Origin: a virus
Length of the DNA: 64,000 nt
Strand: one strand, 5' to 3'
IMG/VR virus record: IMGVR_UViG_3300021364_000008
Span: 1-64,000 of that record
In this document: positions 1,895 through 23,276 of the stretch, in pieces
How the letters are laid out: each line of letters opens with the position of its first letter
Position numbering within the stretch: position 1 is the first letter of the stretch
The notes under the pieces: generated by a model
Told to the model about the DNA's origin: nothing
The model's database searches: none
Seen by the model: only the letters and a program-made list of their open reading frames with translations
Translations under genes and position numbers: made by a program

Positions 1895-2093
1895 AGAAGT
1901 AACCTCTGAGCTTGGAGAACCTGATTGTAGATTAACTGAACCATTTTTAGTAGATCAATCAGGTTCAACTTTATCACCTTGGTTGATTGAGTTTACAACT
2001 GAAAATCAATATATGATATCATCAGACAAAATTATAACTCTCTCTGATCCAAAACCAACCTTACTTGAAAAATATCAGGATTTGATTAAATGA
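1836..2093 (+). CDS. Small conserved protein, gp43-adjacent
   Basis: This is an 85-residue protein of unknown function. The start at 1836 (MKPIKLILLMNNQ) was chosen because GAGGAG lies ten bases upstream. An in-frame ATG at 1818 is also possible. It overlaps the preceding gene by about 60 bases and overlaps the gp43 start by four (ATGA), so translation is probably coupled through into the polymerase. It shares an alternating hydrophobic N-terminal pattern with its neighbour. Confidence 0.6.
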   Translation: MKPIKLILLMNNQILISQVEEVTSELGEPDCRLTEPFLVDQSGSTLSPWLIEFTTENQYMISSDKIITLSDPKPTLLEKYQDLIK

Positions 2094-3565
2094 AGTTTTA
2101 TACAAACGTGCAAATGATTGGGAACAAGTTCCTAGTTCGTGGTTATGAGAATGGTGAGCACGTTATGTTCAAAGATGAATATAATCCAACACTTTATGTT
2201 AAAAGTAATAAGGAAACTAAATATAAAACATTAGATGGTGAGTATGTTGAGGCAATTCAACCGGGAACTGTGAAAGATTGTCGTGAATTTTATAAAAAGT
2301 ATGAAGGAGTTCAGAACTTTAAAATTTACGGTAATGACAGATATGTTTATCAGTATATTTCTGACAAATATCCTCAAGATGAAATTAAGTTTGATATTAA
2401 TAAAATCAAGCTTGTAACTCTTGATATTGAAGTGGGATCTGAAAATGGATTTCCTGACCCAAAAGTTTCTGATCAAGAAATTCTTCTTATTACAATTCAG
2501 GACTATTCTACTAAACAGATTATTACTTGGGGGAATGGTCCTTTTAAGAATAAGCAAAGTAATGTTTCTTATAGAGAATTTACAAATGAGTATTCTCTTC
2601 TAAATGATTTTTTATATTATTGGGAACATAATATGCCAGAAGTTGTTACTGGTTGGAATGTTCAGTTCTTTGATATTCCTTTCATTTATGGGAGATTGGA
2701 AAAAGTTCTTGGGGAAAAAAGAGCTAAATCATTTTCTCCTTGGGGATTGGTGAGTAAAGAGGAAGTATTTATCAATAATAGAACAAATTTATTGATGGAT
2801 ATTGGTGGAATTACTCAACTAGATTATCTTGATTTATATAAAAAATTTACTTATAAGGCACAAGAATCTTATCGTCTAGATCACATTGCTAATGTGGAAC
2901 TTGGGGAGAAGAAATTAGATCACTCAGAATTTGATACTTTCAAAGATTTCTACACCAATGGATGGCAAAAGTTTGTAGAATATAACATCATTGACGTGGA
3001 ACTTGTTGATAGATTGGAAGATAAGATGAAACTGATTGAACTTGCTTTAACTATGGCATTTGATGCCAAGGTTAATTTTGGAGATGTATTTTATCAGGTT
3101 CGTATGTGGGATAATATTATTTACAATTATTTGAAAAAGAGAAATATTGTAATTCCCCCAAAAGATAGGTCTGAAAAGAATGAAAAGTATGCTGGAGCTT
3201 ATGTTAAAGAACCAGTTCCTGGTATTTATGAATGGATTTTGTCTTTGGATTTGACATCTCTATATCCTTCCCTCATTATGCAATATAATATTTCTCCAGA
3301 AACTCTCCTTGATGAAAAATATTCAGGAGTATCTGTTGATAAATTATTGAATAAAGAAATTAATATTGAAAATATTGACGGAAAATGTGTATGTTCAAAT
3401 GGTTGTATGTATGATACAACTAAAAGGGGAATATTTTCAGAACTTGTGGAAAAAATTTTTAATGATAGACAGTATTTTAAAAAAGAAATGTTGAAGGAAA
3501 AAAATAGACTGGAGGAAATTGAAAGTGAATTAAAGAAAAGAGGAATTGATTTAAATACTTTATAA
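2090..3565 (+). CDS. 43A: DNA polymerase gp43, N-terminal fragment
   Basis: This is the first piece of the family B replicative polymerase. It carries the 3'-5' exonuclease motifs LDIEVGS (about residue 110), NVQFFDIPF and YNIIDVELVD, and ends shortly after polymerase motif A (DLTSLYPSLI, about residue 385). The frame stops after KKRGIDLNTL, inside the charged helical hairpin at the tip of the fingers domain. Motifs B and C are encoded by a separate frame 690 bp downstream, so neither piece alone can polymerise DNA. The stop is followed at once by a homing-endonuclease gene. Known split family B polymerases assemble non-covalently, and I infer the same here. Confidence 0.93.
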   Translation: MKFYTNVQMIGNKFLVRGYENGEHVMFKDEYNPTLYVKSNKETKYKTLDGEYVEAIQPGTVKDCREFYKKYEGVQNFKIYGNDRYVYQYISDKYPQDEIKFDINKIKLVTLDIEVGSENGFPDPKVSDQEILLITIQDYSTKQIITWGNGPFKNKQSNVSYREFTNEYSLLNDFLYYWEHNMPEVVTGWNVQFFDIPFIYGRLEKVLGEKRAKSFSPWGLVSKEEVFINNRTNLLMDIGGITQLDYLDLYKKFTYKAQESYRLDHIANVELGEKKLDHSEFDTFKDFYTNGWQKFVEYNIIDVELVDRLEDKMKLIELALTMAFDAKVNFGDVFYQVRMWDNIIYNYLKKRNIVIPPKDRSEKNEKYAGAYVKEPVPGIYEWILSLDLTSLYPSLIMQYNISPETLLDEKYSGVSVDKLLNKEINIENIDGKCVCSNGCMYDTTKRGIFSELVEKIFNDRQYFKKEMLKEKNRLEEIESELKKRGIDLNTL

Positions 3566-3588
3566 TATAAATAATAAAGAGTGTTTAA
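3551..3588 (+). promoter_or_regulatory. Late promoter inside hairpin, HNH gene in gp43
   Basis: The octamer TATAAATA (3566-3573) sits in the loop of an imperfect hairpin. Arms are 3551-3561 and 3577-3588, with one G-T pair and one bulged G. The 3' arm ends five bases before the HNH ATG at 3594. Late transcripts starting about seven bases after the octamer would lack the 5' arm. Confidence 0.7.
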
Positions 3589-3593
3589 GTCAA

Positions 3594-4268
3594 ATGAATT
3601 ATTTAAAATCTTATTGTAAGTTAATTAGAACTGCTGAAAAAAGAAATTGGAAAAGGAAAAATATTGATTTTTATATCGAAGAACATCATATTTTTCCAAT
3701 ATCAATCTATGGAAAAAATGACAGAATAGTTGGATTGACACCAAGAGAACATTTTTTGGCACATTGGTTACTTTATAAAATTTGTATGAAAAGATATGGT
3801 CTAAGAAATAATAAAACATTTAGTATGGGTTCTGCTTTTGCTATGATGTGTGTTACTAATGATTTGCAAGAAAGGAATTATACATCTAGGAAGTATGAGA
3901 TAGTTAGAAATTGTTTATCTACTATAAGAACTGGAAAGTCTAGAGACGATATGAAAGGGAAAAAATATTTTGGGGCAAGTGAAGATGTTATAAAAGAAGG
4001 TATAGAAAAGATGAGGAAAAAGAAAACGGGAATGAAGATAGAATATCCAAAAAATAGAAAATCTTCTCCCTGTTCATCAGAAAAAATAAAAAAAATATCA
4101 GAAACTAGAAAAAATACAAGAGTTAAATTTATTTCTATGAGTGAAGAAGAATTTGAATTGTGGATCTCCAAACAAAATTTTTATAGGAAAGATGGTGCGA
4201 GAAATTCAAATGTTACTCGTACATTAATGTGGAGAAATATTCCTTTGGAGAAATACTATGGGACTTGA
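3594..4268 (+). CDS. HNH homing endonuclease interrupting gp43
   Basis: The 224-residue protein has an HNH core: EEHHIFPISIYG (residues 24-35) and REHFLAHWLL (about 48-57). A Lys/Arg-rich C-terminal half contains NUMOD3-like segments (SSEKIKKISETRK). Such enzymes cut an uninterrupted copy of the target gene so that repair copies the endonuclease gene in. The flanking sequence outside the frame is under 30 bp, too little for a self-splicing intron, so this is a free-standing gene that has split the polymerase. Its last bases overlap the gp43 second-fragment start and supply that fragment's GGAG site. Confidence 0.9.
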   Translation: MNYLKSYCKLIRTAEKRNWKRKNIDFYIEEHHIFPISIYGKNDRIVGLTPREHFLAHWLLYKICMKRYGLRNNKTFSMGSAFAMMCVTNDLQERNYTSRKYEIVRNCLSTIRTGKSRDDMKGKKYFGASEDVIKEGIEKMRKKKTGMKIEYPKNRKSSPCSSEKIKKISETRKNTRVKFISMSEEEFELWISKQNFYRKDGARNSNVTRTLMWRNIPLEKYYGT

Positions 4269-5367
4269 TTATTCAAAAATTTCTACAGATGAGTTGAAAA
4301 AGCAACGTCAAAATTGTATTAAAAGTATTTCGAAATATACAAATAATCAAATGGCAAGAAAAATACAACTTAATAGTTTGTATGGGGCAATAGGAAACGC
4401 ATACTTCAGGTATTACAAACTAGCAAACGCAGAAGCAATTACTCTTTCTGGTCAACTCTCAATTCGTTGGATTGAAAATAGAATGAATCAGTTTCTAAAT
4501 AAGATTTTAAAAACTAAGGATGTAGATTATGTCATCGCATCTGACACAGATTCAATTTATCTTAATCTTGGACCTATTGTTAATAAATTTTTTAATAATA
4601 AAGTTGGGAACAAGAACAAGATTGTGGAACTCTTGGATAAGATATGTCAAGAGCAGTTTGAACCGTTCATCGAATCCAGTTATAAAGAACTTGCGTCATA
4701 TGTCAATGCATATGAGCAAAAAATGCAAATGAAGAGAGAAAATATTGCCGATCGTGGAATATGGACTGCTAAAAAAAGATATATCTTGAATGTCTGGGAT
4801 AGTGAAGGTGTTCGATATGAAGAACCTAAACTTAAGATGATGGGAATTGAAGCAGTCAAATCTTCTACTCCAGCACCTTGTCGTAAGATGATTAAAAATG
4901 CTCTTAAGTTGATGATGAGTGGTACTGAGGATGATGTAATTGATTTTATTGAGAAATGTCGCTCTCAATTTAATAAATTTTCGCCAGAAGAAATAGCATT
5001 TCCTAGAACTGTAACTGATGTGGAAAAATGGAAATCATCATCTGGAATCTATAGTAAGGGAACACCCATTCACGTTCGTGGAGCACTTCTTTTCAATCAT
5101 TATATTAAAGAGAAAAAATTAACTAACAAATACTCTTTGATTCAAAATGGCGAAAAGATTAAATTTTGCTACTTAAAAAAACCAAACATTATTCATGAGA
5201 ATGTGATATCTTTTATATCAGATTTTCCGAAGGAATTTGGTATTGACAAGTATATTGATTATGAACTACAATTTGAAAAAGCATTCTTAGAACCACTTAA
5301 ATCAATTCTTGATGCTATTGGATGGAAAACAGAAAAAACAACTAGTCTGGAGGACTTTTTTTCATAA
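4258..5367 (+). CDS. 43B: DNA polymerase gp43, C-terminal fragment
   Basis: This second piece of the polymerase (369 residues) carries motif B KIQLNSLYGAIGN (about residues 35-47), motif C ASDTDSIYLN (about 92-101) and the thumb. It ends SLEDFFS, close to the clamp-binding tail of T4 gp43. The start ATG follows GGAG by seven bases, so it has its own translation start. RGID at the end of fragment A and GLDYSKIST here are remnants of one continuous loop. It overlaps uvsX by one base. The palm aspartates of motif A and motif C are on different polypeptides. Confidence 0.93.
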   Translation: MGLDYSKISTDELKKQRQNCIKSISKYTNNQMARKIQLNSLYGAIGNAYFRYYKLANAEAITLSGQLSIRWIENRMNQFLNKILKTKDVDYVIASDTDSIYLNLGPIVNKFFNNKVGNKNKIVELLDKICQEQFEPFIESSYKELASYVNAYEQKMQMKRENIADRGIWTAKKRYILNVWDSEGVRYEEPKLKMMGIEAVKSSTPAPCRKMIKNALKLMMSGTEDDVIDFIEKCRSQFNKFSPEEIAFPRTVTDVEKWKSSSGIYSKGTPIHVRGALLFNHYIKEKKLTNKYSLIQNGEKIKFCYLKKPNIIHENVISFISDFPKEFGIDKYIDYELQFEKAFLEPLKSILDAIGWKTEKTTSLEDFFS

Positions 5368-6284
5368 TGGATTTTTTAAAGGACATTGTAAAGGAAATTG
5401 GTGACGATTACACACAACTTGCATCTGAAATTGATGAAACTGAAACTTATGTAGACACAGGTTCATATATTTTTAACGCATTAGTTTCTGGTAGTGTATT
5501 TGGTGGTGTATCTGGAAATAAAATTACTGCCATTGCTGGTGAGTCTTCTACTGGCAAAACTTTCTTTTCTCTTGCTGTTGTTAAAAATTTTCTTGATAGT
5601 AACCCAGATGGTTACTGCCTGTATTTTGATACTGAAGCAGCGATCACTAAATCTCTTTTGGAGAGTCGTGGAGTTGATACAACCAGAACTGTTGTTGTCA
5701 ATGTCGTAACAATTGAAGACTTTCGTACCAAAGCATTGAAAGCTGTAGATATCTACTTAAAGAAACCTGTAGAAGAACGCAAACCTTGTATGTTTGTGCT
5801 AGACTCTTTGGGTATGCTCTCAACTGAGAAAGAAATCAAAGATGCTCTAGATGATAAGCAAGTTCGTGATATGACCAAATCACAACTTGTAAAGGGTGCA
5901 TTCCGAATGCTAACTCTCAAGTTGGGTCAAGCAAAAATTCCAATGATTGTGACTAATCACGTATATTCCGTAATTGGACAATATGTTCCTATGCAGGAAA
6001 TGGGTGGGGGTTGTTTAGTTGCGGGAACTAAGATACAAACAGAAAATGGTTCTATTCCTATTGAATCTATTCAAGTTGGTGACAAAGTGAGAACTATGTT
6101 TGGTTATTCATCAGTTACTCACACTTTCCATTTCACCGACAAAGATGTTTATGAATTGGAATTGGAGGATGGAGAAACTATTAGATGTTCTGGTGAACAT
6201 AAATTTTTAGTAGATACTGGAGATGGTTATGAATGGAAATCTGTTACTGAGTTATTACCTTCAGATACTATCAAATCTATGTGA
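5367..6284 (+). CDS. uvsX-N: UvsX recombinase N-fragment fused to N-intein
   Basis: Residues 1-215 are the RecA-like UvsX ATPase with Walker A GESSTGKTF and Walker B MFVLDSLG. Cys216 starts a 90-residue N-intein with block A (CLVAGTKIQTENG), block B (ETIRCSGEHKFLV) and VGDKV between them. The frame stops after SDTIKSM, so the intein C-terminal blocks are not in this protein. The insertion point is after MQEMGGG, in the conserved glycine-rich DNA-binding loop region. UvsX does strand exchange in T4-type recombination-dependent replication. Function requires trans-splicing with the product starting at 6961. Confidence 0.93.
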   Translation: MDFLKDIVKEIGDDYTQLASEIDETETYVDTGSYIFNALVSGSVFGGVSGNKITAIAGESSTGKTFFSLAVVKNFLDSNPDGYCLYFDTEAAITKSLLESRGVDTTRTVVVNVVTIEDFRTKALKAVDIYLKKPVEERKPCMFVLDSLGMLSTEKEIKDALDDKQVRDMTKSQLVKGAFRMLTLKLGQAKIPMIVTNHVYSVIGQYVPMQEMGGGCLVAGTKIQTENGSIPIESIQVGDKVRTMFGYSSVTHTFHFTDKDVYELELEDGETIRCSGEHKFLVDTGDGYEWKSVTELLPSDTIKSM

Positions 6285-6289
6285 AAGTT

Positions 6290-6326
6290 GGTTCTGGACT
6301 AAATAATAATAGTTTAGTCCAGAACC
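6290..6326 (+). promoter_or_regulatory. Perfect 14-bp hairpin with late promoter, HNH gene in uvsX
   Basis: Arms 6290-6303 and 6313-6326 are perfect complements around a 9-base loop. ACTAAATA (6298-6305), a late-promoter-like octamer, spans the end of the 5' arm and the loop. The 3' arm abuts the TTG start codon of the HNH gene. A short T-run follows, so the element could also act as a weak terminator for read-through transcripts. Confidence 0.75.
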
Positions 6327-7001
6327 TTGTTTTTATCAAATAAGTATACTGATTGTTATTTCCGTATTATTAATAAGGCAAATCTTAGGAAACTTCCTCA
6401 AATTACTGAATGTCATCATATTATACCTAAATCATTAGGTGGAGGGGAAGAAGCAGAAAACAAAGTATATTTAACACCAAGAGAACATTTTGTCTGTCAC
6501 CATCTTCTTCTGAAAATGTTGGAGGGAAAATTAAAGCAGAAAATGTGTTATGCCTTTTATAATATGAAACGTAGTAATGGTAATGGTGTTAGATGTAAAA
6601 ATGTCAATTCTTATGATAGAATAAGATCACACTACTCACATCTTACTTCGGGTGAAAACAATCCATTTTATGGTAAGGGACATTATGGATTTTCTAACCC
6701 GATGTCAAACCCTGAAGTTCGGGAGAAACATAAACAAATCGTTTCTTCACCTGAACATAGAAAGAAGATGAGTGATAAAATGTCTGGTGAAAATAATCCA
6801 TTTTACGGAAGAACTCATTCAGATGAAACCAAGAAACATCTTTCTGAGTTGGCGTCTCAGAGAATAGGTAAAAACTCTCCCCGTTATGGGAAGAAACACA
6901 AACAAGTTGTTTGTGAACACTGCCAAAAACAAATCACTTACCCAATGTATAAGAGGTGGCATGGAACGAACTGTAAAATCTATAAAGAAAATAAAAACTG
7001 A
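6327..7001 (+). CDS. HNH homing endonuclease inside the uvsX split intein
   Basis: The 224-residue protein has the HNH core [13 protein letters not shown] (about residues 28-40) and [11 protein letters not shown] (about 52-62), then repeated NUMOD3-like DNA-binding motifs (SGENNPFYG twice, [11 protein letters not shown]). The start is TTG: the protein then begins MFLSNKYTD, the form I know from related phage HNH proteins, and no ATG is available. No clear Shine-Dalgarno sequence precedes it. It is a separate gene, not fused to either intein half, and its 3' end overlaps the uvsX C-fragment by 41 bases in another frame. Confidence 0.88.
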
Positions 7002-7431
7002 AGATGTTTATGACATCACTGTTGAGGGAGAACATCATTATATTCTTGATAATGGTGTTGTGTCTCATAACTCTGGTCTTAAATATGCTGCTTCTACAAT
7101 CATTTATCTTTCTAAAAAGAAGGAGAAAGATGGAACAGAAGTCATTGGAAATATTATTAAAGCAAAGACTGCAAAATCACGCTTGAGTAAAGAAAATAAG
7201 GAAGTAGAGATTCGCTTGTATTATGATGAGAGGGGGCTAGACCGATACTATGGTCTCTTGGAGCTTGGAGAAATCGGTGGACTTTGGAAAAATGTAGCAG
7301 GACGCTATGAAATTGATGGTAAGAAAATTTATGGGAAACAAATTCTTGCAGAACCTGAAAAATATTTTACGCCCGAATTAATGGAGAAACTTGATGAAAT
7401 TGCGAGACACGAATTTAGTTACGGTAAGTAA
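6961..7431 (+). CDS. uvsX-C: C-intein fused to UvsX C-fragment
   Basis: Residues 1-37 are a C-intein with block F ([16 protein letters not shown]) and block G (DNGVVSHN). The +1 extein residue is Ser38. From there [13 protein letters not shown] continues UvsX exactly where the N-fragment stops. The ATG at 6961 was chosen because GAGG lies just upstream and the C-intein then has a normal length. Splicing would join MGGG to SGLKYAAS, recreating the RecA L2-like segment. The gene overlaps the HNH gene at its 5' end and the oxygenase gene at its 3' end. Confidence 0.92.
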
Positions 7432-8080
7432 AACACCATTATCACTATTTCCAATACCTGTTGAAATCTTTAATTTTAATAATCATTATCACGATTTAAA
7501 TGTATCTTTAATTGAAGATATAATTAAAGAAAAGAATAATGATCCTTCTGGTGCTAATCACAGCAATATGTGGGGGTGGCACAGTAAAACAAATTTGGAA
7601 AGAGTTTATGAGAGTTTTACTAGACTCAAAGATATAATTGAATCATGTGGAAATGAGTATTGTAAACAGTATGGATATAAAGATGGTTTAGTATGCTCAG
7701 ATCTTTGGGCAAATGTGAATGGTCCTAATGATTTAAATTTTAATCATCACCACGGAACTTCTGCTCTTGCTGGTGTTTATTATCCAGTCGAATCAATACT
7801 TGACTGTGGTTGTATTTTCAACTACACTAATAATAACCCATTAAAAGGTGGCACTTGGAATAATGTTGATGGGGGATCTCTTGTTTTTCAAGATCCTTCC
7901 TACGGAAAGAAAATCCATCTCATAAAGGATAAAGATTCTCCGTATAATGTAGATTTTTATCATTTATATCCAACTTCTGGAGTTTTGGTTTTATTTCCAA
8001 CCTACTTATTGCATAGTGTACTTCCATTCAGAGATGATAAAACTAGGGTAAGTATATCTTTTGCATTTATCTATGGATAA
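7394..8080 (+). CDS. 2OG-Fe(II) oxygenase
   Basis: This is a putative 2-oxoglutarate/iron dioxygenase of the type common in cyanophages. [15 protein letters not shown] and the distal HSVLPF...TRVSISFAF blocks match the double-stranded beta-helix family in which the first motif and the distal His bind iron and the Arg binds 2-oxoglutarate. Length (about 228) is normal. The start is uncertain: ATG 7394 overlaps uvsX-C by 38 bases, and the family-like sequence begins about ten residues later. The substrate is unknown. It overlaps gp41-N by eight bases. Confidence 0.78.
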
Positions 8081-8702
8081 AATTGAATTTTTAATATTGA
8101 AGTGTCTTATTAACAATGAAGAATATGCTAGAAAAGTTTTACCCTTTATTAAGGAAGAATATTTTGAAGAATTTGAGCAAAAGGTAGTATTTCAAGAAAT
8201 TTCTAAGTTTATTCTTGAGTATAATAAAATTCCCACAAAGCAAATTCTTGATATTGAAGTTGAAAAACGTAATGATATCAATGGAGATCAATATAAATCC
8301 ATAAGCCAACTAGTTGATAATCTTGATGAAATTGCTGTTGAATATAAATGGTTGATTGATTGTACAGAAAAATGGTGTAGAGATCGTGCAATTTATCTTG
8401 CCCTGATTGAATCTATTCAACTGGTAGATGATAAGGGTGATAAAAATAGAGATGCAATTCCATCAATATTGCAAGATGCTCTTTCAGTTTCATTTGACAA
8501 TCACGTAGGCCATGATTATCTTCAGGACTACAAAGGAAGATTTGAATTTTATAATAAAAAGGAGGAACGAGTTGAATTTGATTTGGAATATTTTAACAAA
8601 ATTACCAAAGGTGGTCTCCCTAATAAAACTCTCAATATCGCACTTGCTGGTTGTGTTCACCCAGAAACCAAAGTTAAGATTAGATTTAGGAAGATTTCTT
8701 GA
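8073..8702 (+). CDS. 41-N: Replicative helicase gp41 N-fragment with 16-residue N-intein
   Basis: Residues 1-193 are the N-terminal domain and linker of the DnaB-like helicase gp41, ending NKTLNIALAG just before the Walker A loop. Cys194 begins CVHPETKVKIRFRKIS and the frame stops after these 16 residues. CVHPETKV matches intein block A. The rest of the intein and the ATPase domain are encoded from 9389. An N-intein this short identifies the atypical split class. The last 17 bases overlap, in antisense, the end of the HNH gene. Without splicing the helicase has no complete P-loop. Confidence 0.9.
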   Translation: MDKIEFLILKCLINNEEYARKVLPFIKEEYFEEFEQKVVFQEISKFILEYNKIPTKQILDIEVEKRNDINGDQYKSISQLVDNLDEIAVEYKWLIDCTEKWCRDRAIYLALIESIQLVDDKGDKNRDAIPSILQDALSVSFDNHVGHDYLQDYKGRFEFYNKKEERVEFDLEYFNKITKGGLPNKTLNIALAGCVHPETKVKIRFRKIS

Positions 8703-9354
8703 TTTTGGAGTTTGGTGCTGGTTCTCCTGTTCCAAATTTCCAACCTTCGTTTAATTTAGTATCAACATCTTCTGGAAGTATTCTTTTCCATCCTTTTGTT
8801 CCTGGTAAGTGCATTACCTTTTTGCCTTTGTGTGCCTTTCCTCCAAGAGATGCTCTTTCCCTTCTTCCTTGATTTGATGCCCAGTAATTAAATTCTTTTG
8901 ATGCTCTCTTTTTTCCTCCAAGAGATGCTCTTTCTTTTCTGCCTTCTTCTGTGCTCCAATAATAAAAATTTTTAACTTTATTGTTTAGATATTCTTGTTT
9001 TTGAGTTTCTATTCCTTTAATCATCCATTCTTTTCTTTCTTCTACTGGTGTTGAAAAGAAACCAAGTTGATTATCTCTACAAAACTCTCCAATTATTTTT
9101 CTATGTTGTGGTGATAAATTAGCACCTAACATTTTCATAGATCTTAAATCATTTGGATTTTTGTAAATCTTCCAAAGTAAATAGTGTGCTATGATGTGTT
9201 CTCTAACATTCAAGTATGTGAGGTTGCAATCATCATCTGTTCCTCCCATATGTTTAGGAACAATATGATGCTCGTGTAGTCCTGAATATTTCTTATAGTT
9301 TTCTCTTCTTAACTTATTGCCTTCGCATAAGTTAGAATAGATACGATCAAACAT
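8686..9354 (-). CDS. HNH homing endonuclease, antisense, within split gp41
   Basis: This is the only convincing protein gene on the minus strand in this window. It encodes 222 residues with HNH core LHEHHIVPKHMGGT (about residues 26-39) and REHIIAHYLLW (about 52-62). Three related C-terminal repeats follow (EEGRKERASLGGK, NQGRRERASLGGK), which are probably NUMOD-type DNA-binding units. A GGGACAGGGA stretch precedes the ATG. It lies between the two halves of a fractured helicase gene but is transcribed against them and converges on gp41-N with a 17-base overlap. Confidence 0.9.
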   Translation of the reverse strand: MFDRIYSNLCEGNKLRRENYKKYSGLHEHHIVPKHMGGTDDDCNLTYLNVREHIIAHYLLWKIYKNPNDLRSMKMLGANLSPQHRKIIGEFCRDNQLGFFSTPVEERKEWMIKGIETQKQEYLNNKVKNFYYWSTEEGRKERASLGGKKRASKEFNYWASNQGRRERASLGGKAHKGKKVMHLPGTKGWKRILPEDVDTKLNEGWKFGTGEPAPNSKIKKSS

Positions 9355-9376
9355 TCCCTGTCCCTGCTACTGTTAT

Positions 9377-9384
9377 TATTTATA
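9377..9384 (-). promoter_or_regulatory. Late promoter for the antisense HNH gene
   Basis: TATAAATA on the minus strand lies 22 bases upstream of the HNH start codon at 9354. Unlike the + strand endonuclease genes, no hairpin spans it. Confidence 0.75.
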
Positions 9385-9388
9385 TAAA

Positions 9389-10561
9389 ATGTGGATTGAA
9401 AAAGAAACATCAATTGCTGAAATCAAAACATTACTTGATAATGGATATGAGGTAGAAGTTGATTCGCCTGATGGATATGTTCCAGTCAATTTCTTTATTA
9501 ACAAAGGAATGTATGATGAATATGTTTTAAAGGTTGATGGTGAAGAACCAATTAGGTGTAATGCCGATCATTTATTTGAAACATCTTTTGGGTGGATGAA
9601 AGCATCGCATCTTTTTGAAAAATATAAGACAAATCATTTTTTAACTAAAAATGATTATAAACTTGGTAGTGTCTTTAAAACAGGAAATCAAATACCTATT
9701 GTTGATATTAATGTAAATCACCCAAATCATAGGTATTATACTAATGGTGTTTCTTCTCATAATACTGGTGTGGGTAAATCTCTATTCATGTGCCATGTGG
9801 CTAGCTCCGTCTTGCTCCAAGGGAGGAATGTACTCTACATTACAATGGAAATGGCAGAGGAGAAAATTGCTGAGCGAATTGATGCAAACCTTTTAAATAT
9901 CCCAATTCAGCAATTGACAGATCTTCCAAAGTCAATGTTTGAAACCAAAGTTACAAACATTTCTAAAAAAACTCAGGGAACTTTTATAATTAAAGAGTAT
10001 CCAACTGCTTCTGCACATGCTGGACACTTTAAATCACTTCTTAATGAACTTGCACTTAAGAAATCATTTAGACCTGATATTATTTTCATTGATTACCTTA
10101 ATATTTGTGCTTCCTCTAGATATAGGGGAAACCTTTCTGTCAATTCTTATTCGTATATTAAGGCAATTGCTGAAGAACTTCGAGGATTGGCGGTGGAATT
10201 CAATGTCCCCATCGTTTCTGCTACTCAAACCACTCGCAGTGGTTATGGTAGTTCTGATGTTGAACTTACTGATACTTCTGAATCCTTTGGTCTCCCTGCT
10301 ACTGCTGATCTTATGTTTGCCCTTATTAGCACTGAAGAGTTGGAGGAGTTGGGGCAGATTATGGTAAAGCAACTGAAGAATCGTTATGCTTCAACTGATA
10401 AATATAGAAGGTTCGTCTTAGGAATTGATAGGTCAAAAATGAGATTATATGACTGCGAGCAATCAGCTCAAGAAGATATTCTTGACAACAGCAAAGAAGA
10501 CGAGTATGATTTCCATGAGGAAAACAAACCCAAGAAAACATTTGAAGGATTTAAATTCTAA
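9389..10561 (+). CDS. 41-C: 125-residue C-intein fused to gp41 helicase C-domain
   Basis: Residues 1-125 are a large C-intein: block B EEPIRCNADHLFE, block F PIVDINVNHPNHRYY and block G TNGVSSHN. Thr126 is the +1 residue and starts TGVGKSLFMCHVA, the Walker A loop. The rest is the RecA-type helicase core with IIFIDYLNICASS (Walker B) and PIVSATQTTRSGYG. Joined to the N-fragment the loop reads ALAG-TGVGKS. No clear Shine-Dalgarno precedes ATG 9389, and the sequence there is AT-rich. T4 gp41 unwinds the fork and carries the gp61 primase. Confidence 0.92.
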   Translation: MWIEKETSIAEIKTLLDNGYEVEVDSPDGYVPVNFFINKGMYDEYVLKVDGEEPIRCNADHLFETSFGWMKASHLFEKYKTNHFLTKNDYKLGSVFKTGNQIPIVDINVNHPNHRYYTNGVSSHNTGVGKSLFMCHVASSVLLQGRNVLYITMEMAEEKIAERIDANLLNIPIQQLTDLPKSMFETKVTNISKKTQGTFIIKEYPTASAHAGHFKSLLNELALKKSFRPDIIFIDYLNICASSRYRGNLSVNSYSYIKAIAEELRGLAVEFNVPIVSATQTTRSGYGSSDVELTDTSESFGLPATADLMFALISTEELEELGQIMVKQLKNRYASTDKYRRFVLGIDRSKMRLYDCEQSAQEDILDNSKEDEYDFHEENKPKKTFEGFKF

Positions 10562-10562
10562 T

Positions 10563-10973: not shown

Positions 10974-10978
10974 TACTT

Positions 10979-10999: not shown

Positions 11000-11007
11000 T
11001 ATAAATA
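11000..11007 (+). promoter_or_regulatory. Late promoter TATAAATA
   Basis: A perfect octamer directly fused to the preceding terminator T-run, 27 bases before the start codon of the internal-protein gene. Confidence 0.85.
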
Positions 11008-15024: not shown

Positions 15025-15038
15025 AACATTTTATACTC

Positions 15039-17177: not shown

Positions 17178-17178
17178 T

Positions 17179-17568: not shown

Positions 17569-17615
17569 TTGAGGAATTAATTTTCTCGATATTCAATTTA
17601 TTAAAGGAGGGTACA

Positions 17616-17786
17616 GTGTCTAAAATAGTAGAACTAGTTAAGCCTGTAGTATTTGCATTCATTGGGTCAAGAGAAGTAAAAGAATTTGTTATTCAACTTC
17701 TAGAAAAATATGTTTCTAGAACAGATAACTCAGTTGATGATGTTGCAGTTCAACTCATCAAAGAAAAACTTCTTCCTAACGAGTGA
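17616..17786 (+). CDS. Small conserved protein, GTG start
   Basis: This 56-residue protein starts MSKIVELVKPVVFAFIGS. GTG 17616 follows a strong AAAGGAGGG site by five bases, which fixes this start. An N-terminal hydrophobic stretch (VVFAFIG) is followed by an amphipathic helix (KEFVIQLLEKYV). It may associate with membrane, but the stretch is too short for a confident transmembrane call. Function is unknown. Confidence 0.65.
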   Translation: MSKIVELVKPVVFAFIGSREVKEFVIQLLEKYVSRTDNSVDDVAVQLIKEKLLPNE

Positions 17787-17827
17787 TAGGGTTTTAAACT
17801 CTATTAAACAAAATAGAATAATTTAGG

Positions 17828-17852
17828 AGAGAAGTAAGCACTTCTCTTTTTT
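17828..17852 (+). terminator. Intrinsic terminator
   Basis: Perfect 8-bp stem AGAGAAGT / ACTTCTCT, loop AAGC, then a T-run that continues into TATAAATA. Confidence 0.85.
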
Positions 17853-17860
17853 TATAAATA
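17853..17860 (+). promoter_or_regulatory. Late promoter TATAAATA
   Basis: A perfect octamer starting within the terminator T-run, 30 bases before ATG 17891. Confidence 0.85.
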
Positions 17861-17890
17861 TTTTTAGTTAAAACATTTAAAGGTAAAAAG

Positions 17891-18445
17891 ATGGCACTCT
17901 GGGGCAATAAGGATTCAGTTTACTCTGACGGTACTATTTCAGTAAATCTTGAAACTAATACTATAGAGGGTGGCGTTGGTGTTGTCACTTTCACTACCTC
18001 CGGAATTAGTACCGGTGACGTAATCGCAGTGGGAACTGGTGCTACCTACGGATATGCAATAGTAGCAGGATTTACATCCACCACAATTTCTATTGCTAAC
18101 ACTGCAGATTTTGTTTCTGGACTTACAACTGTTCCTTCAGGAACTTCATACTTTATTTCTCAAGAACCAGTATACACTCTTGGAGATTCTACTTACAGAG
18201 CACCTGAGTCTAAAACTGTTGGATATTCTACAAGTCCAGTATTCACTGGGGTATTTGGTGTGGATGAAATTGAGGTTGGAATAGCAGCAACAACTGCCTA
18301 TGCAGTCACTCACGGTGGATGGGTTGGACTCACAACCTATATTGATATGCATGGAAATTTGAGAGTTAAGAATGAAGTTTTAGTTGCTGGTGGCATTCTT
18401 ACTACTACTGATGCTCCTGATGATACCTACTTCCCAGATGCTTGA
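17891..18445 (+). CDS. Virion structural protein (MALWGNKD family)
   Basis: The 184-residue protein begins MALWGNKDSVYSDGTISVN, an N-terminus I associate with cyanomyovirus structural proteins. It is Gly/Thr/Ser-rich with predicted beta-strands throughout and ends VKNEVLVAGGILTTTDAP followed by DDTYFPDA. The conserved TAYAVTHGGWVGLTTY segment lies near residue 135. The exact location in the virion is not clear from sequence. It follows a perfect late promoter. Confidence 0.72.
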   Translation: MALWGNKDSVYSDGTISVNLETNTIEGGVGVVTFTTSGISTGDVIAVGTGATYGYAIVAGFTSTTISIANTADFVSGLTTVPSGTSYFISQEPVYTLGDSTYRAPESKTVGYSTSPVFTGVFGVDEIEVGIAATTAYAVTHGGWVGLTTYIDMHGNLRVKNEVLVAGGILTTTDAPDDTYFPDA

Positions 18446-18470
18446 TAAATATAAGAACTGAAAATTAAAT

Positions 18471-18863
18471 ATGCACTTTAATGAATTAAACCGAGATAAT
18501 TTTTTATTATTTGCAATAAAAAATTATGAGAATCCTCAGGCAGTTACAAAAGATGATTTTAACAAAGACCTGAATCATTTTAAGTATATTAAAAGATTAC
18601 TTAAAAGATATAAAAAAACTGGTGAAATTAAAAGTCATCTTTTGATTAATCATTTTTTAATTTTGTATAATGTTTTTGGTGAAGCTACTACTCCAATGTT
18701 ATTTTGTAAATTAGATCCTGAGTATTGGCCACAAATAAAAACTTTTTTAGTATTTTTAAATAGACTTCCGGAATATCCAAAGTCAGATATTCATGATATA
18801 ATGGTCGATATTGAATGCCTAAAGCAGCTAAATAAAATTTACAAATCAGATGGAAAAAGTTGA
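18471..18863 (+). CDS. Conserved cyanophage hypothetical protein
   Basis: This 130-residue helical protein has KYIKRLLKRYKKTGEIKSHL LLINHFLILYNVFG-like hydrophobic and charged helices and a FCKLDPEYWPQIKTFLVFL segment. A GATAAATA late-promoter variant precedes it. No function is known to me. It overlaps the next gene by 14 bases. Confidence 0.65.
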   Translation: MHFNELNRDNFLLFAIKNYENPQAVTKDDFNKDLNHFKYIKRLLKRYKKTGEIKSHLLINHFLILYNVFGEATTPMLFCKLDPEYWPQIKTFLVFLNRLPEYPKSDIHDIMVDIECLKQLNKIYKSDGKS

Positions 18864-19044
18864 TAGAGTAATTGAATATTTTAGATCTCTTAGAGAAGAT
18901 GCTCCGACTATGAATGTTGGATCTGGAAAAATTGCAGGAACTCGTGAAGCTGGTGATGATCCTCCTGTTTTTAATAGAAAGAAAAAGAAAAAGTATATCT
19001 ATGGTCCTCGTAAAGTTTGGATAGATCACCTGAAAGATAAATAA
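18850..19044 (+). CDS. Small basic late protein
   Basis: This 64-residue protein begins MEKVDRVIEYFRSLREDAP, has a Gly-rich middle (MNVGSGKIAG) and a Lys-run (NRKKKKKYIYGPRK). The pattern of a short helix, a Gly/Thr linker and a basic tail is typical of small cyanophage late proteins, possibly prohead-associated. Its start overlaps the upstream gene. Confidence 0.62.
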   Translation: MEKVDRVIEYFRSLREDAPTMNVGSGKIAGTREAGDDPPVFNRKKKKKYIYGPRKVWIDHLKDK

Positions 19045-19085
19045 TTAAAAATGGCAAAGTGAGAAAACGCTATAGGATTCTCATA

Positions 19086-19541
19086 ATGTCTCCTTTCAAA
19101 AAAAATATCAAATTAGATACAGATCAAGAATCAGTCAGAGTTGCTATTCTTGAGCAAAAACTTACAGATTTTGTTGATGTCGTAGGAAAACTTGATGCTG
19201 CTATTGAAAAGTTAAGTGAAGTTAATGGTAATATTTCAAAAATGCTTGCAGTTCACGATGAAAAATTGACACAATCTGCAAAAGATGATTATCTAATTAT
19301 GAAATCAATTGAAGAAATTAAAGAGCAAAATAATGCTGATCACAATAAAGTTTTAGATAGAATTGAAAAAATAGAATATAAAATTCAAGATTTTGGTAAA
19401 TTTAGATGGATGACTATTGGAATTGGAGTTGCCATAATGGTTGGGATTAGTGGATTGACAACTTTGGCATCTGGAATAATTAGAATGGAAAATAAAAATT
19501 CATCTCAAAGTAGTTATGTCAAACAAATCAGTCAGATATAG
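19086..19541 (+). CDS. Coiled-coil protein with C-terminal membrane anchor
   Basis: The 151-residue protein starts at ATG 19086; an upstream alternative at 19059 looks unlikely. Residues 15-110 are heptad-rich (ILEQKLTDFVDVVGKLDAAIEKL and following). One transmembrane segment near 115-135 (MTIGIGVAIMVGISGLTTLA) comes before a short hydrophilic tail. The topology resembles anchored spanin or holin accessory proteins, but nothing proves a lysis role. Confidence 0.65.
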   Translation: MSPFKKNIKLDTDQESVRVAILEQKLTDFVDVVGKLDAAIEKLSEVNGNISKMLAVHDEKLTQSAKDDYLIMKSIEEIKEQNNADHNKVLDRIEKIEYKIQDFGKFRWMTIGIGVAIMVGISGLTTLASGIIRMENKNSSQSSYVKQISQI

Positions 19542-19624
19542 TTTGATATCATATTGTCTTCACAAAATCTCAAACTCTGTGGCTAAGTGGACAAGTTTAA
19601 TCTCAGATATATGTAAGCAGATAC

Positions 19625-19653
19625 TTGACTGATATCATAATAGTTGCTATACT
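19625..19653 (+). promoter_or_regulatory. Sigma70-type promoter before primase
   Basis: TTGACT (19625-19630), a 17-bp spacer and TATACT (19648-19653), 22 bp before the gp61 ATG. It would drive the primase-nrdA-nrdB unit. Confidence 0.75.
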
Positions 19654-19675
19654 TTTCTGAGGGCATTTTCTCCAA

Positions 19676-20644
19676 ATGGATTTTATTGACATAAAATATA
19701 TTAATATCATTTCAACAAGACTTTCTAAGTTTAAAAAAGTTAAAGCCAATTTATACAATTTTAGATGTCCAATTTGTGGAGATTCTAGGAAAAATAAAAA
19801 CAAAGCGAGGGGATACTTATATGAAGTAAAAAACAATACAAATTATAAGTGTCATAATTGTGGAATAAATATTTCATTCTCAAATTTCTTAAAGGAAATT
19901 GATAATACTATTCATAAAGAATATTCTTTTGATAAATTTAAAGAAGGCAAAACTGGTAAAAATTTTGTAGTAGAAGAACCCAAGTTTAATTTTGAAAGTC
20001 CAAAGTTTAAAACTCGAATAAATTTACCTAAGGCATCTGAAAATGAAGATGCAAGGAAGTATTTGGAAAATAGAAAATTAGATCCTGATAAATTTTATTA
20101 TGCCGAAAAATTTAAATATTGGACAAATACTCTTAAGAAAACATTTGATAATATTGATTATGATGAACCTAGAATAATAATTCCACTATTTTATGAGAAA
20201 AAATTGATTGGATTTCAAGGTAGAGCACTAGGTAACAGTAAGATTAAATATATAACTATAATGTTAGATGAAAATGCGCCAAAAATTTATGGACTTGATA
20301 CTATTGATGAGAAAAAACCAATCTATGTGGTCGAAGGACCCTTTGACAGCACTTTTGTCAGCAATTGTGTGGCATTGTGTGGCAGTGACGGTGATGTGGG
20401 TTGTCTTAAGGGAAGCGATATTATTTTTGTGTATGATAATGAACCCCGTAATAAAGAAATTGTTGATAGAATTGACAGAATTATTGAAAGAGGATATAAA
20501 TCAGTCATCTGGCCGAGTAACATAAAGGAGAAGGACATAAACGATATGGTATTGGCTGGACTGGATGTTCAGTCTGTGATAGAATTAAATACTTATTCTG
20601 GATTACAAGCAAAAATAAAGTTTACTACTTGGAAAAAAATATGA
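19676..20644 (+). CDS. 61: DNA primase gp61
   Basis: The 322-residue protein has an N-terminal zinc ribbon (FRCPICGDSRKNK and YKCHNCGINISF) and a TOPRIM-type core: PIYVVEGPFDSTF, a Gly/Asp segment CGSDGDVG and IIFVYDNEPRNK. Gp61 makes RNA primers and works with gp41. Length matches T4 gp61 (342). It overlaps nrdA-a by four bases (ATGA), implying translational coupling. Unlike its helicase partner it is uninterrupted. Confidence 0.92.
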   Translation: MDFIDIKYINIISTRLSKFKKVKANLYNFRCPICGDSRKNKNKARGYLYEVKNNTNYKCHNCGINISFSNFLKEIDNTIHKEYSFDKFKEGKTGKNFVVEEPKFNFESPKFKTRINLPKASENEDARKYLENRKLDPDKFYYAEKFKYWTNTLKKTFDNIDYDEPRIIIPLFYEKKLIGFQGRALGNSKIKYITIMLDENAPKIYGLDTIDEKKPIYVVEGPFDSTFVSNCVALCGSDGDVGCLKGSDIIFVYDNEPRNKEIVDRIDRIIERGYKSVIWPSNIKEKDINDMVLAGLDVQSVIELNTYSGLQAKIKFTTWKKI

Positions 20645-22095
20645 GCAACCAATCAAATGTAATTAAGAGAAATGGTGAAGTGGAAATCCTTAACCTAGAC
20701 AAGATGCATGTTATGGTGGAGGAAGCTTGTAGGGGAATTTCTGGAGTTTCTGCAAGTCAAGTTGAAATGAAGTCTGGAATACAATTTTACGATGGAATTA
20801 CTACTAAGGAAATTCAAGAAATTCTTATTCGTAGTGCTAGTGATTTGATCGATCTGGATCATCCAAATTATCAATATGTTGCTGCAAGACTACTTTTATT
20901 TTCTATTCGTAAGCAACTTTATGCCAGACAGTTTGAATTGCCCCATCTTGAAGATCACATTATAAATTGTGTAAATGCTGAAGTTTACGATAATGAAATC
21001 TTTACAAAATATTCTAAAGAAGAAATTGATAAGGTAAATAGTTTCATTGATCATGATAGAGATCTTCTTTTTACTTATGCAGGTCTTCGTCAAGTAGTTG
21101 ATAAGTATTTGGTTCAAGATAGAAGTTCTGGTGGAGTATATGAAACTCCGCAGTTTATGTACATTATGATTGCTTTGACTATTTTTGCGGAATATCCAAA
21201 ACAAACTCGTTTACTTTATGTAAAAAGGTATTATGACGCAATCAGCAAACACAAGATCAACATTCCAACACCAATTATGGCAGGTGTTAGAACCCCACTT
21301 CGCCAATTTGCAAGTTGTGTTCTTGTTGATGTCGATGATACCATGCGTAGTATCGAGTCAAGTGATGCTGCTATTTTTAGGTACGTTGCTCAAAGAGCTG
21401 GAATTGGTATCAACGCAGGTCGAATCAGGGGTATCAACAGCAAAATCAGAGGGGGAGAAGTTATTCATACAGGTGTTGTCCCATTCCTCAAAAAGTTTGA
21501 AGCAACTGTTAGAAGTTGTACACAGAACGGGATTCGCGGTGGAAGTGCTACGGTCCACTTTCCAATCTGGCACCAAGAAATAGAAGACATCATTGTCTTA
21601 AAAAATAATAAAGGAACTGAGGATAATCGTGTTCGTAAGTTAGACTACAGCATTCAGATTAGTAAACTGTTCTATGAACGTTTCATTCAAGACAAAGAAA
21701 TTTCTCTCTTCAGTCCGCATGACGTTCCTGGTTTGTATGATGCTTTTGGCACTGATAGATTTGACGATCTATATTGCCATTACGAACGAGCTCAAGATGT
21801 TCCAAGAAAGACTGTCCGTGCTCAAGAACTCATTCTGGATCTTCTAAAAGAACGTGCTGAGACTGGTCGTATTTACATTATGAATATTGACCATTGTAAT
21901 TCTCATAGTTCTTTTAAGGATCAAATTACAATGTCAAACCTCTGCCAAGAAATTTGTCTGCCGACTGTACCAATTCAGCATATTGATCAAAAACCAAATA
22001 CGATGAAAATGAAAGTAAAAGTTAAAAAAGATAAAGTTAATGATTATAAAAAATATATTCAAAATACCGGAGGAGTTCTATATGACCATGAATAA
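20641..22095 (+). CDS. nrdA-a: Ribonucleotide reductase large subunit, N-fragment
   Basis: This is the class Ia alpha subunit up to just after the radical cysteine. It has the ATP-cone start (VIKRNGEVEILNLDKMHVMV), FASCVLVDVDDTM holding the first redox cysteine (E. coli C225 equivalent), GIGINAGRIRG, and SNLCQEICLPT holding the thiyl-radical cysteine (C439 equivalent). The frame stops after NTGGVLYDHE. The partner redox cysteine (C462 equivalent) is encoded by the next fragment, so the active site is shared between two polypeptides. There is no intein motif at the break. Confidence 0.92.
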   Translation: MSNQSNVIKRNGEVEILNLDKMHVMVEEACRGISGVSASQVEMKSGIQFYDGITTKEIQEILIRSASDLIDLDHPNYQYVAARLLLFSIRKQLYARQFELPHLEDHIINCVNAEVYDNEIFTKYSKEEIDKVNSFIDHDRDLLFTYAGLRQVVDKYLVQDRSSGGVYETPQFMYIMIALTIFAEYPKQTRLLYVKRYYDAISKHKINIPTPIMAGVRTPLRQFASCVLVDVDDTMRSIESSDAAIFRYVAQRAGIGINAGRIRGINSKIRGGEVIHTGVVPFLKKFEATVRSCTQNGIRGGSATVHFPIWHQEIEDIIVLKNNKGTEDNRVRKLDYSIQISKLFYERFIQDKEISLFSPHDVPGLYDAFGTDRFDDLYCHYERAQDVPRKTVRAQELILDLLKERAETGRIYIMNIDHCNSHSSFKDQITMSNLCQEICLPTVPIQHIDQKPNTMKMKVKVKKDKVNDYKKYIQNTGGVLYDHE

Positions 22096-22099
22096 TTAA

Positions 22100-22243
22100 T
22101 ACCAGAAAAGTTTTGGGTCTAAAAATGGTTGGAGTAAAAAGGTTAAAATTGGAGAAGTTGTGTATGATTGTATGAGAGAAGCATCAGAAAAAACCGGTTT
22201 AAGTTTACATTTAATTAGAAAAAAAGGAGATTTCAATGTCTAA
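22100..22243 (+). pseudogene. Homing-endonuclease remnant (NUMOD1-like) within nrdA
   Basis: Between the nrdA pieces, an open stretch in another frame reads YQKSFGSKNGWSKKVKIGEV, then VYDCMREASEKTGLSLHLIR. This is the NUMOD1-type helix-turn-helix unit that forms the C-terminal end of many phage GIY-YIG and HNH endonucleases. It has no nuclease domain and no start codon. The stop overlaps the nrdA-b ATG, and its last codons hold the AAGGAG site of nrdA-b. It is the scar of the element that broke nrdA. Confidence 0.72.
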
Positions 22244-23276
22244 TAAATTGTACGAATTTGTATTTGAAAATGAAATAGAAGATAATGAAAATTATGAATA
22301 TTTTTATGAAGATGTAGTAGTTGATGATAATCCAGCATCAATTCAGCTATGCATTCTTTCGGCAATTAATGTCGGAAAAGTAAAATCTGATGAAGAACTT
22401 GAAGAACTTTGCGATCTTTCGGTTCGTGGATTGGATGAATTGATTGATTATCAGAAATATCCTGTAAAGGCAGCTGAAATAGCTACAAAGGCACGTAGAT
22501 CCCTTGGAATAGGTTTTATTGGGTTGGCACACTATTTGGCAAAACTTGGGTTTAATTATGCAGATCAAGAAGCATGGGACGCTGTTCATGGTCTTTCAGA
22601 ATCTTTTCAGTACTATCTTTTGAAAGCATCAAATCAACTTGCTAAAGAAAAGGGATATTGTGAGTACTTTGGACGTACTAAGTATGCTGATGGTATTTTG
22701 CCAATTGATACTTATAAGAAAGATGTGGATGAGATTTCTTCAATTCCTCTTCAGCATAACTGGGAAGAACTTAGGAAGAATATTTTGGAGTATGGGTTGC
22801 GCCATAGTACATTGACTGCTCAAATGCCCTCAGAGTCATCTTCAGTGGTCTCTAATGCAACCAATGGAATAGAACCTCCTCGTGGATTCCTGTCCATTAA
22901 GAAGTCTAAGAAAGGGCCTCTTAAGCAGATTGTTCCCCAATATTCTACCTTAAAAAATAATTACACACTTTTGTGGGACATGAAATCTAATGAGGGATAC
23001 ATTAATATAGTTGCAGTAATGCAAAAGTTTTTCGATCAAGCAATCAGTGGCAATACCAGTTACAATCCAGAGAACTATCCAAATAATGAGGTCCCTGTAA
23101 GTGTCTTGGCACAAGATCTGCTTACTTGTTTTCGTACTGGATGGAAAACACTTTATTATCAAAATACTTATGATATTAAAACTGATGATTTTTCGGATAA
23201 GTCTTCAGAAATTGAAAGACTTATAAATGATATTATGGAGTCTGATGAAAATGATTGCGAATCATGTAAAGTTTAG
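22236..23276 (+). CDS. nrdA-b: Ribonucleotide reductase large subunit, C-fragment
   Basis: The 346-residue protein begins at an ATG six bases after AAGGAG and continues NrdA: IQLCILSAINVGK (redox cysteine, C462 equivalent), GFIGLAHYLAKLG, STLTAQMPSESSS, and the C-terminal ESCKV tail, which is short but keeps one cysteine. It must pair with nrdA-a to form the active site. Aeromonas phage Aeh1 has a comparable gene-in-pieces NrdA that keeps activity. The first 35 residues are acidic and poorly conserved. Confidence 0.92.
   Translation: MSNKLYEFVFENEIEDNENYEYFYEDVVVDDNPASIQLCILSAINVGKVKSDEELEELCDLSVRGLDELIDYQKYPVKAAEIATKARRSLGIGFIGLAHYLAKLGFNYADQEAWDAVHGLSESFQYYLLKASNQLAKEKGYCEYFGRTKYADGILPIDTYKKDVDEISSIPLQHNWEELRKNILEYGLRHSTLTAQMPSESSSVVSNATNGIEPPRGFLSIKKSKKGPLKQIVPQYSTLKNNYTLLWDMKSNEGYINIVAVMQKFFDQAISGNTSYNPENYPNNEVPVSVLAQDLLTCFRTGWKTLYYQNTYDIKTDDFSDKSSEIERLINDIMESDENDCESCKV

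What the first reader, a model, noticed from the sequence alone, without database searches (positions are those of the whole stretch)
2090..23276. Four essential genes of one phage are in pieces
Polymerase, recombinase, helicase and ribonucleotide reductase are all fractured, by three different mechanisms (simple split, two split-intein types, decayed scar), while primase, MazG and NrdB are whole. The combination in one genome is extreme and would put fork assembly under control of trans-splicing and subunit pairing. Split inteins may also slow early replication until both halves accumulate.
Basis: partly seen in the sequence, partly recalled or inferred. Interest (0 to 1): 0.88.

Follow-up and report, generated by a model that had tools for sequence, protein, structure and literature searches.

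The report
Cyanophage with four split replication genes
In one T4-like cyanophage, mobile DNA-cutting elements have cut four DNA-replication genes in two, and each insert seems to bring its own way of putting the protein back together, so the breaks look like survivable parasites rather than errors or a control switch.

Summary
gp43 (polymerase), uvsX (recombinase), gp41 (helicase) and nrdA are each in two ORFs; gp61, MazG and NrdB are whole.

Each break is a homing-endonuclease cassette. gp43 is cut at the fingers tip by an HNH gene. uvsX carries a canonical split intein with an HNH gene between the halves. gp41 carries a 16-residue, VidaL-like split intein in its Walker A motif, with the HNH gene on the opposite strand. 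nrdA is cut in a loop with a basic N-half tail and an acidic C-half tail; only the 3' end of a GIY-YIG endonuclease gene remains.

Every break recurs in unrelated contigs. Identity peaks on each cassette and falls within a few hundred bases, as homing with co-conversion predicts. In about 20 large relatives no other contig has more than one split gene; this one has four.

Each repair type is already known: fractured genes, VidaL, phage 25/44RR gp43, Aeh1 NrdA. New here is the stack of four, and that the nrdA split is a T4-like-wide module. Its N-tail is conserved in cyanophages, Aeh1, coliphages and a further T4-like phage. Its endonuclease is either HNH or GIY-YIG, or, as here, lost while split and tails stay. 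Control of fork assembly by splicing has no support here.

The parts
2090..3565 (+). gp43 N-half (exonuclease, start of palm/fingers), 491 aa
   Evidence: PF03104 E 2.5e-24, PF00136 positions 21-145
3594..4268 (+). HNH homing endonuclease gene inside gp43
   Evidence: phrog_655 homing endonuclease E 9.8e-29; same place in L157-L167; dN/dS 0.09-0.17
4258..5367 (+). gp43 C-half, 369 aa; its start and Shine-Dalgarno lie in the 3' end of the HNH gene
   Evidence: PF00136 from position 148; TTTGGAGAAATACTATG
5367..6284 (+). uvsX N-extein (5367-6011) plus 90-aa IntN (6012-6281, CLVAGT...)
   Evidence: RecA/UvsX and Intein_splicing/Hint matches; site shared with L004-L006, L010
6290..6326 (+). terminator-like hairpin just before the uvsX HNH gene
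   Evidence: 15-bp stem plus T-run; kept in L004, L005, L006, with one compensatory pair in L006
6327..7001 (+). HNH + NUMOD3 homing endonuclease gene between uvsX halves
   Evidence: NUMOD3 E 9.6e-18; phrog_655 E 5.8e-41
6961..7431 (+). uvsX C-half: 37-aa IntC (6961-7071, ...VVSHN) plus C-extein starting with Ser
   Evidence: Intein_splicing positions 122-155; gp41-1 intein 6qaz is the best solved relative
8061..8702 (+). gp41 N-extein (to 8651; likely ATG at 8073) plus 16-aa IntN (8652-8699, CVHPETKVKIRFRKIS)
   Evidence: 14-19 aa versions in L084-L087 and L397
8686..9354 (-). HNH homing endonuclease gene on the opposite strand between gp41 halves
   Evidence: phrog_655 E 1.4e-15; same orientation in L084, L085, L086, L397
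9389..10561 (+). gp41 C-half: 125-aa IntC (9389-9763) then C-extein TGVGKS... (Walker A)
   Evidence: DnaB_C E 2.4e-16; predicted IntC fold closest to VidaL 6vgv, TM 0.70
20629..22095 (+). nrdA N-half with a 34-aa basic tail (21991-22092, KPNTMKMKVKVKKDKV...)
   Evidence: tail absent from intact cyanophage NrdA; dN/dS 0.06-0.12
22106..22243 (+). remnant (3' end) of a deleted GIY-YIG-like homing endonuclease gene; supplies AAGGAGATTTCAATG for the C-half
   Evidence: alignment with L169, L250-L252; different deletion in L249; RBS
22236..23276 (+). nrdA C-half with a 35-aa acidic tail (22236-22340, MSNKLYEFVFENEIEDNENYEYFYED...)
   Evidence: PF02867 from 218; tail conserved in L169, L249-L252, L400-L403

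Best explanation
The four breaks are four separately acquired homing-endonuclease cassettes in conserved sites of essential genes. Each cassette ends the upstream half with a stop codon, supplies a start (usually with a ribosome-binding site) for the downstream half, and is tolerated because the product can be rebuilt. UvsX and gp41 are predicted to be rebuilt covalently, by a canonical and by an atypical (VidaL-like) split intein. gp43 and NrdA are predicted to be rebuilt without splicing: gp43 through lengthened arms at the fingers tip, NrdA through a basic/acidic tail pair, as in phage 25/44RR gp43 and Aeh1 NrdA. The nrdA endonuclease has since been deleted, but split and tails remain, probably because exact repair is rare and imprecise repair would be harmful. 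Shown here: anatomy, insertion sites, intact catalytic motifs, purifying selection, recurrence, mobility signature, tail conservation. Inferred: that splicing and assembly occur in infected cells.
For: Same-site cassettes in independent contigs. Identity to relatives is highest on the cassette (mostly 84-99%) and drops to about 70-80% within 100-360 bp for gp43, gp41 and nrdA and in the closest uvsX relatives. dS of tails and HEGs is below that of the gene body in most pairs. Intein motifs intact: C1, block-B His, terminal HN, +1 Ser or Thr. gp41 IntC closest to VidaL by sequence (E 7.7e-9) and predicted fold; uvsX intein closest to gp41-1. gp43 split where 44RR is split; intact cyanophage fingers 57 aa in 60 of 61 distinct sequences, split ones about 86-100 aa with their two parts summed. 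NrdA N-tail matches Aeh1, HY01 and L404 tails (several pairs at 0-3 of 4000 shuffles). The DNA-binding part of the nrdA endonuclease of L404 has Aeh1 MobE as its best match among 50,697 phage records. Base rates and large contigs.
Against: No protein or expression data. Co-occurrence of the four rests on one metagenomic contig. The uvsX identity peak is weak against L006 and L010 (72-84% throughout). C-tail homology across phage families is not significant between cyanophages and Aeh1 or HY01, though net charge is -9 to -13 in all. Role of the gp43 arms is inferred only.
Confidence: 0.85

Rival explanations
1. Sequencing or assembly error: frameshifts or a chimeric contig make whole genes look broken.
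For: Single metagenomic record; no other contig links these four breaks. L168 shows that broken-looking, duplicated gp43 contigs exist.
Against: Breaks are insertions of 359-1112 nt holding conserved genes, not indels; each recurs at the same site in other assemblies. Gene order is canonical and ORFs are open. GC is similar across the gene bodies.
Confidence: 0.05
2. Decay: the genes are dead and the phage relies on host enzymes or a partner phage.
For: nrdA endonuclease is partly deleted.
Against: Both halves of gp43 and nrdA are open; gp43 C-half dN/dS 0.07-0.08 against relatives, nrdA C-half body 0.08 against L250; tails also constrained. Intein and P-loop residues kept.
Confidence: 0.04
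3. Regulatory fragmentation: trans-splicing and subunit pairing time replication.
For: Halves are separately translated; hairpin 6290-6326 could lower uvsX C-half transcripts.
Against: Cassettes are mobile and patchily distributed; relatives with intact genes are the rule; related inteins splice in seconds to a minute in vitro.
Confidence: 0.06
4. The gaps are self-splicing introns removed from RNA.
For: Homing endonucleases often sit in group I introns.
Against: No intron family reached its Rfam threshold; gp43 gap is filled by the HNH ORF with 28 nt to spare; uvsX and gp41 gaps are bounded by intein motifs.
Confidence: 0.02

Closest known systems
Fractured genes with split inteins and a free-standing endonuclease (Dassa et al. 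2009, cited in PMC10448857 and PMC3653736)
   Same: Gene in two ORFs, each ending or starting in a split-intein half, with an endonuclease gene between; applies to uvsX and gp41.
   Different: Here two such genes lie beside two non-splicing splits in one genome; the gp41 endonuclease is on the opposite strand. The 2009 paper itself was not held, so its endonuclease family was not compared.
VidaL atypically split intein (PDB 6vgv, 6vgw)
   Same: 16-aa IntN (PMC13014065), Hint fold, best sequence and predicted-fold match of the gp41 IntC.
   Different: Only 28% identity in the structural match; inserted in the gp41 Walker A of a cyanophage; activity untested.
gp41-1 canonical split intein (PDB 6qaz)
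   Same: Closest solved relative of the UvsX intein (E 7e-15), canonical split.
   Different: Sits in uvsX, with an HNH/NUMOD3 gene between the halves.
Aeh1 genes-in-pieces NrdA (NrdA-A / MobE / NrdA-B)
   Same: Same loop, homologous basic N-tail, acidic C-tail, endonuclease with homologous DNA-binding part.
   Different: Nuclease domain is GIY-YIG-like in cyanophages, HNH in Aeh1; in the window the nuclease core is deleted.
Split gp43 of Aeromonas phages 44RR and 25
   Same: Split at the same fingers-tip place (44RR compared here); in phage 25 the halves co-purify with activity (PMC2988022).
   Different: 44RR has no endonuclease there and phage 25 a seg gene (PMC2988022); here it is HNH. Cyanophage split arms are longer than in intact cyanophage gp43.

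Membership tests
Canonical split intein (uvsX) | Catalytic motifs: C1, block-B His, C-terminal HN, +1 nucleophile | tested here: met
   CLVAGT..., CSGEHKF...VVSHN then Ser
Canonical split intein (uvsX) | N- and C-exteins join without loss into an intact homologue | tested here: met
   Joined query aligns end to end with intact phage UvsX
Canonical split intein (uvsX) | Trans-splices | not testable with these tools
   needs expression
Atypically split (VidaL-type) intein (gp41) | IntN of about 15-37 aa, split near the N-terminus | tested here: met
   16 aa in the window, 14-19 aa in relatives; range from PMC13014065
Atypically split (VidaL-type) intein (gp41) | Hint fold of the long C part | tested here: met
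   AlphaFold2 model pLDDT 80; VidaL 6vgv top hit
Fractured gene (Dassa type) | Free-standing endonuclease gene between split-intein halves | tested here: met
   HNH genes at 6327-7001 and 8686-9354
Fractured gene (Dassa type) | Endonuclease belongs to the family described in 2009 | not tested
   paper not held
Aeh1-type fragmented NrdA | Split in the same NrdA loop | tested here: met
Aeh1-type fragmented NrdA | Homologous N-half tail | tested here: met
   L252-Aeh1 and L404-Aeh1 0 of 4000 shuffles; window-Aeh1 weaker, 51 of 4000
Aeh1-type fragmented NrdA | Homologous C-half tail | tested here: inconclusive
   all acidic; cyanophage-Aeh1 alignment not above shuffles
Aeh1-type fragmented NrdA | Endonuclease gene between the halves | tested here: not met
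   only a remnant in the window; present, as GIY-YIG-like, in L169, L250-L252 and L404
Aeh1-type fragmented NrdA | Two-piece large subunit is active | not testable with these tools
   needs protein
44RR/25-type split gp43 | Split at the fingers tip | tested here: met
   termini compared with 44RR
Group I intron | Ribozyme in the gap | tested here: not met
   none at Rfam gathering threshold

The most novel reading that the evidence does not exclude
T4-like phages share a portable, non-splicing reassembly module: a basic and an acidic tail that travel with a homing endonuclease into one loop of NrdA. It is indifferent to the nuclease domain (HNH or GIY-YIG) and outlives the nuclease. This cyanophage stacks that module with three other cassettes, so that polymerase, recombinase, helicase and ribonucleotide reductase all have to be rebuilt from halves in one infection.
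Probability: 0.5. Interest if true: 0.68.

Novelty: new variant of a known kind. Interest (0 to 1): 0.56.

Why it matters
It shows how far essential genes of one phage can be fragmented while staying open and conserved, by four cassettes with different repair solutions. The nrdA comparison separates the reassembly part (tails) from the mobility part (nuclease): tails persist after the nuclease is lost in two different deletions (window, L249) and across nuclease types. That makes an open question testable: are such splits reversible parasitism or a one-way ratchet? The tails and the 16-aa intein are also possible sources of new protein-joining tools.

Tried and rejected
Intron explanation: no Rfam intron. 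Tails as a loop inherited from intact NrdA: Acinetobacter Lazarusvirus NrdA is whole and has a long insertion in this loop, but the insertion does not clearly resemble the tails (best of ten comparisons 32 of 4000 shuffles, the rest far worse). Searching cultured phages with the cyanophage nrdA tails alone found nothing; homology appeared only through intermediates L252, L404 and HY01. Direction of change between the split uvsX intein and the contiguous form in L007 could not be decided. L168 looked like a duplicated gp43 but is full of frameshifts and was set aside. The GIY-YIG call for the nrdA endonuclease is modest: model pLDDT 57, I-TevI catalytic domain best fold hit at E 7.8e-3, backed by the L404 match to NCBIfam grpIintron_endo. 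Dassa 2009 was not held. The sigma-70 promoter scan gave no more sites than shuffles.

Full report
CHECK. The window is positions 1-64000 of a 99,003-bp viral record. Gene order is that of a T4-like cyanophage, and the nearest cultured relatives are Synechococcus phages such as S-SM2, S-T4 and S-CAM9. The four genes are broken as stated. Joined exteins of UvsX align end to end with intact phage UvsX, so nothing is lost at the break. gp61, MazG and NrdB are whole.

gp43. The N-half ends at 3565, an HNH gene runs 3594-4268, and the C-half starts at 4258, inside the 3' end of the HNH gene, with its own Shine-Dalgarno sequence. The same arrangement is in L157-L167. Four other sets (L066, L152, L318, and L258 with L024 and L036) are split at this place without an HNH gene of this size. 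Aeromonas phage 44RR is split at the corresponding place. Intact cyanophage gp43 has a 57-residue stretch here in 60 of 61 distinct sequences. Adding the two parts, split versions have about 86-100 residues, so the split forms carry longer arms.

uvsX. The N-half ends in a 90-aa IntN and the C-half starts with a 37-aa IntC; an HNH/NUMOD3 gene lies between. The best solved relative is the gp41-1 intein. L004, L005, L006 and L010 share the allele. L007 has it as a contiguous intein, plus a second, split intein about 11 residues upstream. A 15-bp terminator-like hairpin precedes the HNH gene. It is kept in L004-L006, with one compensatory pair in L006, and is weak in L010.

gp41. IntN is only 16 aa and IntC 125 aa; the insertion splits the Walker A motif (ALAG / TGVGKS), and the HNH gene is on the other strand. 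L084-L087 and L397 share it. By sequence and by predicted fold the closest solved structure is VidaL, whose IntN is also 16 aa (PMC13014065).

nrdA. In L169, L250, L251 and L252 a GIY-YIG-like endonuclease gene lies between the halves at this same site. The window and L249 have lost most of it by two different deletions, but both keep the 3' end that holds the ribosome-binding site of the C-half. Both halves carry tails absent from intact cyanophage NrdA: basic on the N-half, acidic on the C-half. dN/dS of the N-tails is 0.06-0.12 in six pairwise comparisons; the C-tails are noisier, from 0.04 to 0.87 over 35 codons.

THE TAILS BEYOND CYANOPHAGES. Aeh1 NrdA is split in the same loop, with a basic N-tail and an acidic C-tail. 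A more distant T4-like contig, L404, has the same plan with a GIY-YIG-like gene 43% identical to the cyanophage one. Searching 50,697 phage records with the DNA-binding part of the L404 enzyme gave Aeh1 MobE first, then endonucleases of about 30 T-even coliphage records. In the two of these that I opened, HY01 and vB_EcoM_112, the gene lies inside a split nrdA, and a further search found the HY01 tail sequence in about 30 records. N-tails of these groups match each other above shuffles: L404-Aeh1, L404-HY01, Aeh1-HY01 and L252-Aeh1 at 0 of 4000, the other between-group pairs at 3 to 54 of 4000. C-tails match significantly only within the cyanophages and between Aeh1 and HY01, though net charge is -9 to -13 in all five. 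So the endonuclease's DNA-binding part and the N-tail go together, while the nuclease domain is HNH in Aeh1 and the coliphages and GIY-YIG-like in L404 and the cyanophages.

MOBILITY. Nucleotide identity between the window and its relatives is highest on each cassette and falls within a few hundred bases on both sides. Examples: gp43 HNH 95% against 72-82% in most of the gene body (L158); gp41 IntC 95% against 64-77% (L084); nrdA tails 91-92% against 69-79% (L169). dS is lower on tails and endonucleases than on gene bodies in most pairs. This is the expected trace of homing with short co-conversion. The uvsX signal is clear against L004 but not against L006 and L010.

HOW UNUSUAL. With anchors neutral to breakage, complete genes were broken in 2 of 29 (gp43), 0 of 21 (uvsX), 2 of 17 (gp41) and 4 of 52 (nrdA). 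In 19 large contigs where all four genes were read cleanly, five have one broken gene, one has a contiguous insert in gp43, and 13 have none; some of these contigs entered the set because they carry a break. Among shorter contigs three have two broken genes: L005, L007, L010. No other contig has four. The window was picked because it looked odd, so these numbers describe rarity and are not a test.

MECHANISM. Shown: anatomy, sites, motifs, constraint, recurrence, mobility, tail conservation. Inferred: splicing of UvsX and gp41, and non-covalent assembly of gp43 and NrdA. Published work supports the inference by analogy: phage 25 gp43 halves co-purify with activity, and Aeh1 NrdA works in pieces (PMC2988022; PMC3267527). 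From my own knowledge, Crona et al. 2011 showed that the Aeh1 tails are needed for activity; that paper is cited in PMC3267527 but was not read here.

NOVELTY. Every repair type is known. The stack of four, the two losses of the nrdA nuclease with tails kept, and the spread of one tail pair across T4-like phages with exchanged nuclease domains are the new parts. I did not find them described in the papers held; absence there is weak evidence.

LIMITS. One contig carries all four; chimerism is unlikely but not excluded. No expression data. Hosts of the metagenomic contigs are not known here.

Noticed in passing
L395:9394-11169 (record about 71393-73168, outside the window): thyX carries a contiguous intein with a LAGLIDADG domain: a fifth invaded DNA-metabolism gene in this record.
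   Followed up: partly
L427 (phage HY01) 1174-4342; L428 (vB_EcoM_112): T-even coliphages with nrdA split by an HNH gene, with the basic/acidic tails; in HY01 the two nrdA halves are not annotated.
   Followed up: partly
L429, L430 (Acinetobacter Lazarusvirus), nrdA: Uninterrupted NrdA with a long insertion in the loop that is split elsewhere; not clearly related to the tails.
   Followed up: yes
L007:8174-10673: uvsX with two neighbouring inteins, one split with its endonuclease gene on the minus strand, the other contiguous and of the window's allele.
   Followed up: partly
L397:2320-2691: Extra 123-aa ORF with an HEIIHYN metallopeptidase-like motif lodged between gp41 halves.
   Followed up: no
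L152, L066, L318, L258, L024, L036: gp43 split at the fingers tip without a full-size HNH gene; in L152 a 65-aa ORF sits in the gap.
   Followed up: partly
L191, L232, L243 and others: A second nrdA site with a split intein and a GIY-YIG-type gene between the halves.
   Followed up: no
window 51736-54615, 57256-60162, 61690 onward: Three very long proteins built of repeats such as DRIDYSNDTATASVRGPLS; no Pfam match for the first.
   Followed up: no
window 24588-25322, 25927-26376, 26406-26984, 31955-32302; L396:457-1026: Further homing-endonuclease-like genes or fragments.
   Followed up: partly
window 32555-32654 and 29772-29808: wcaG RNA before a sugar epimerase-type gene, and an abiF RNA match beside tRNA-Arg.
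   Followed up: no
L395:4080-4445: C-terminal fragment of a TnpB/Cas12f-like transposon protein.
   Followed up: no
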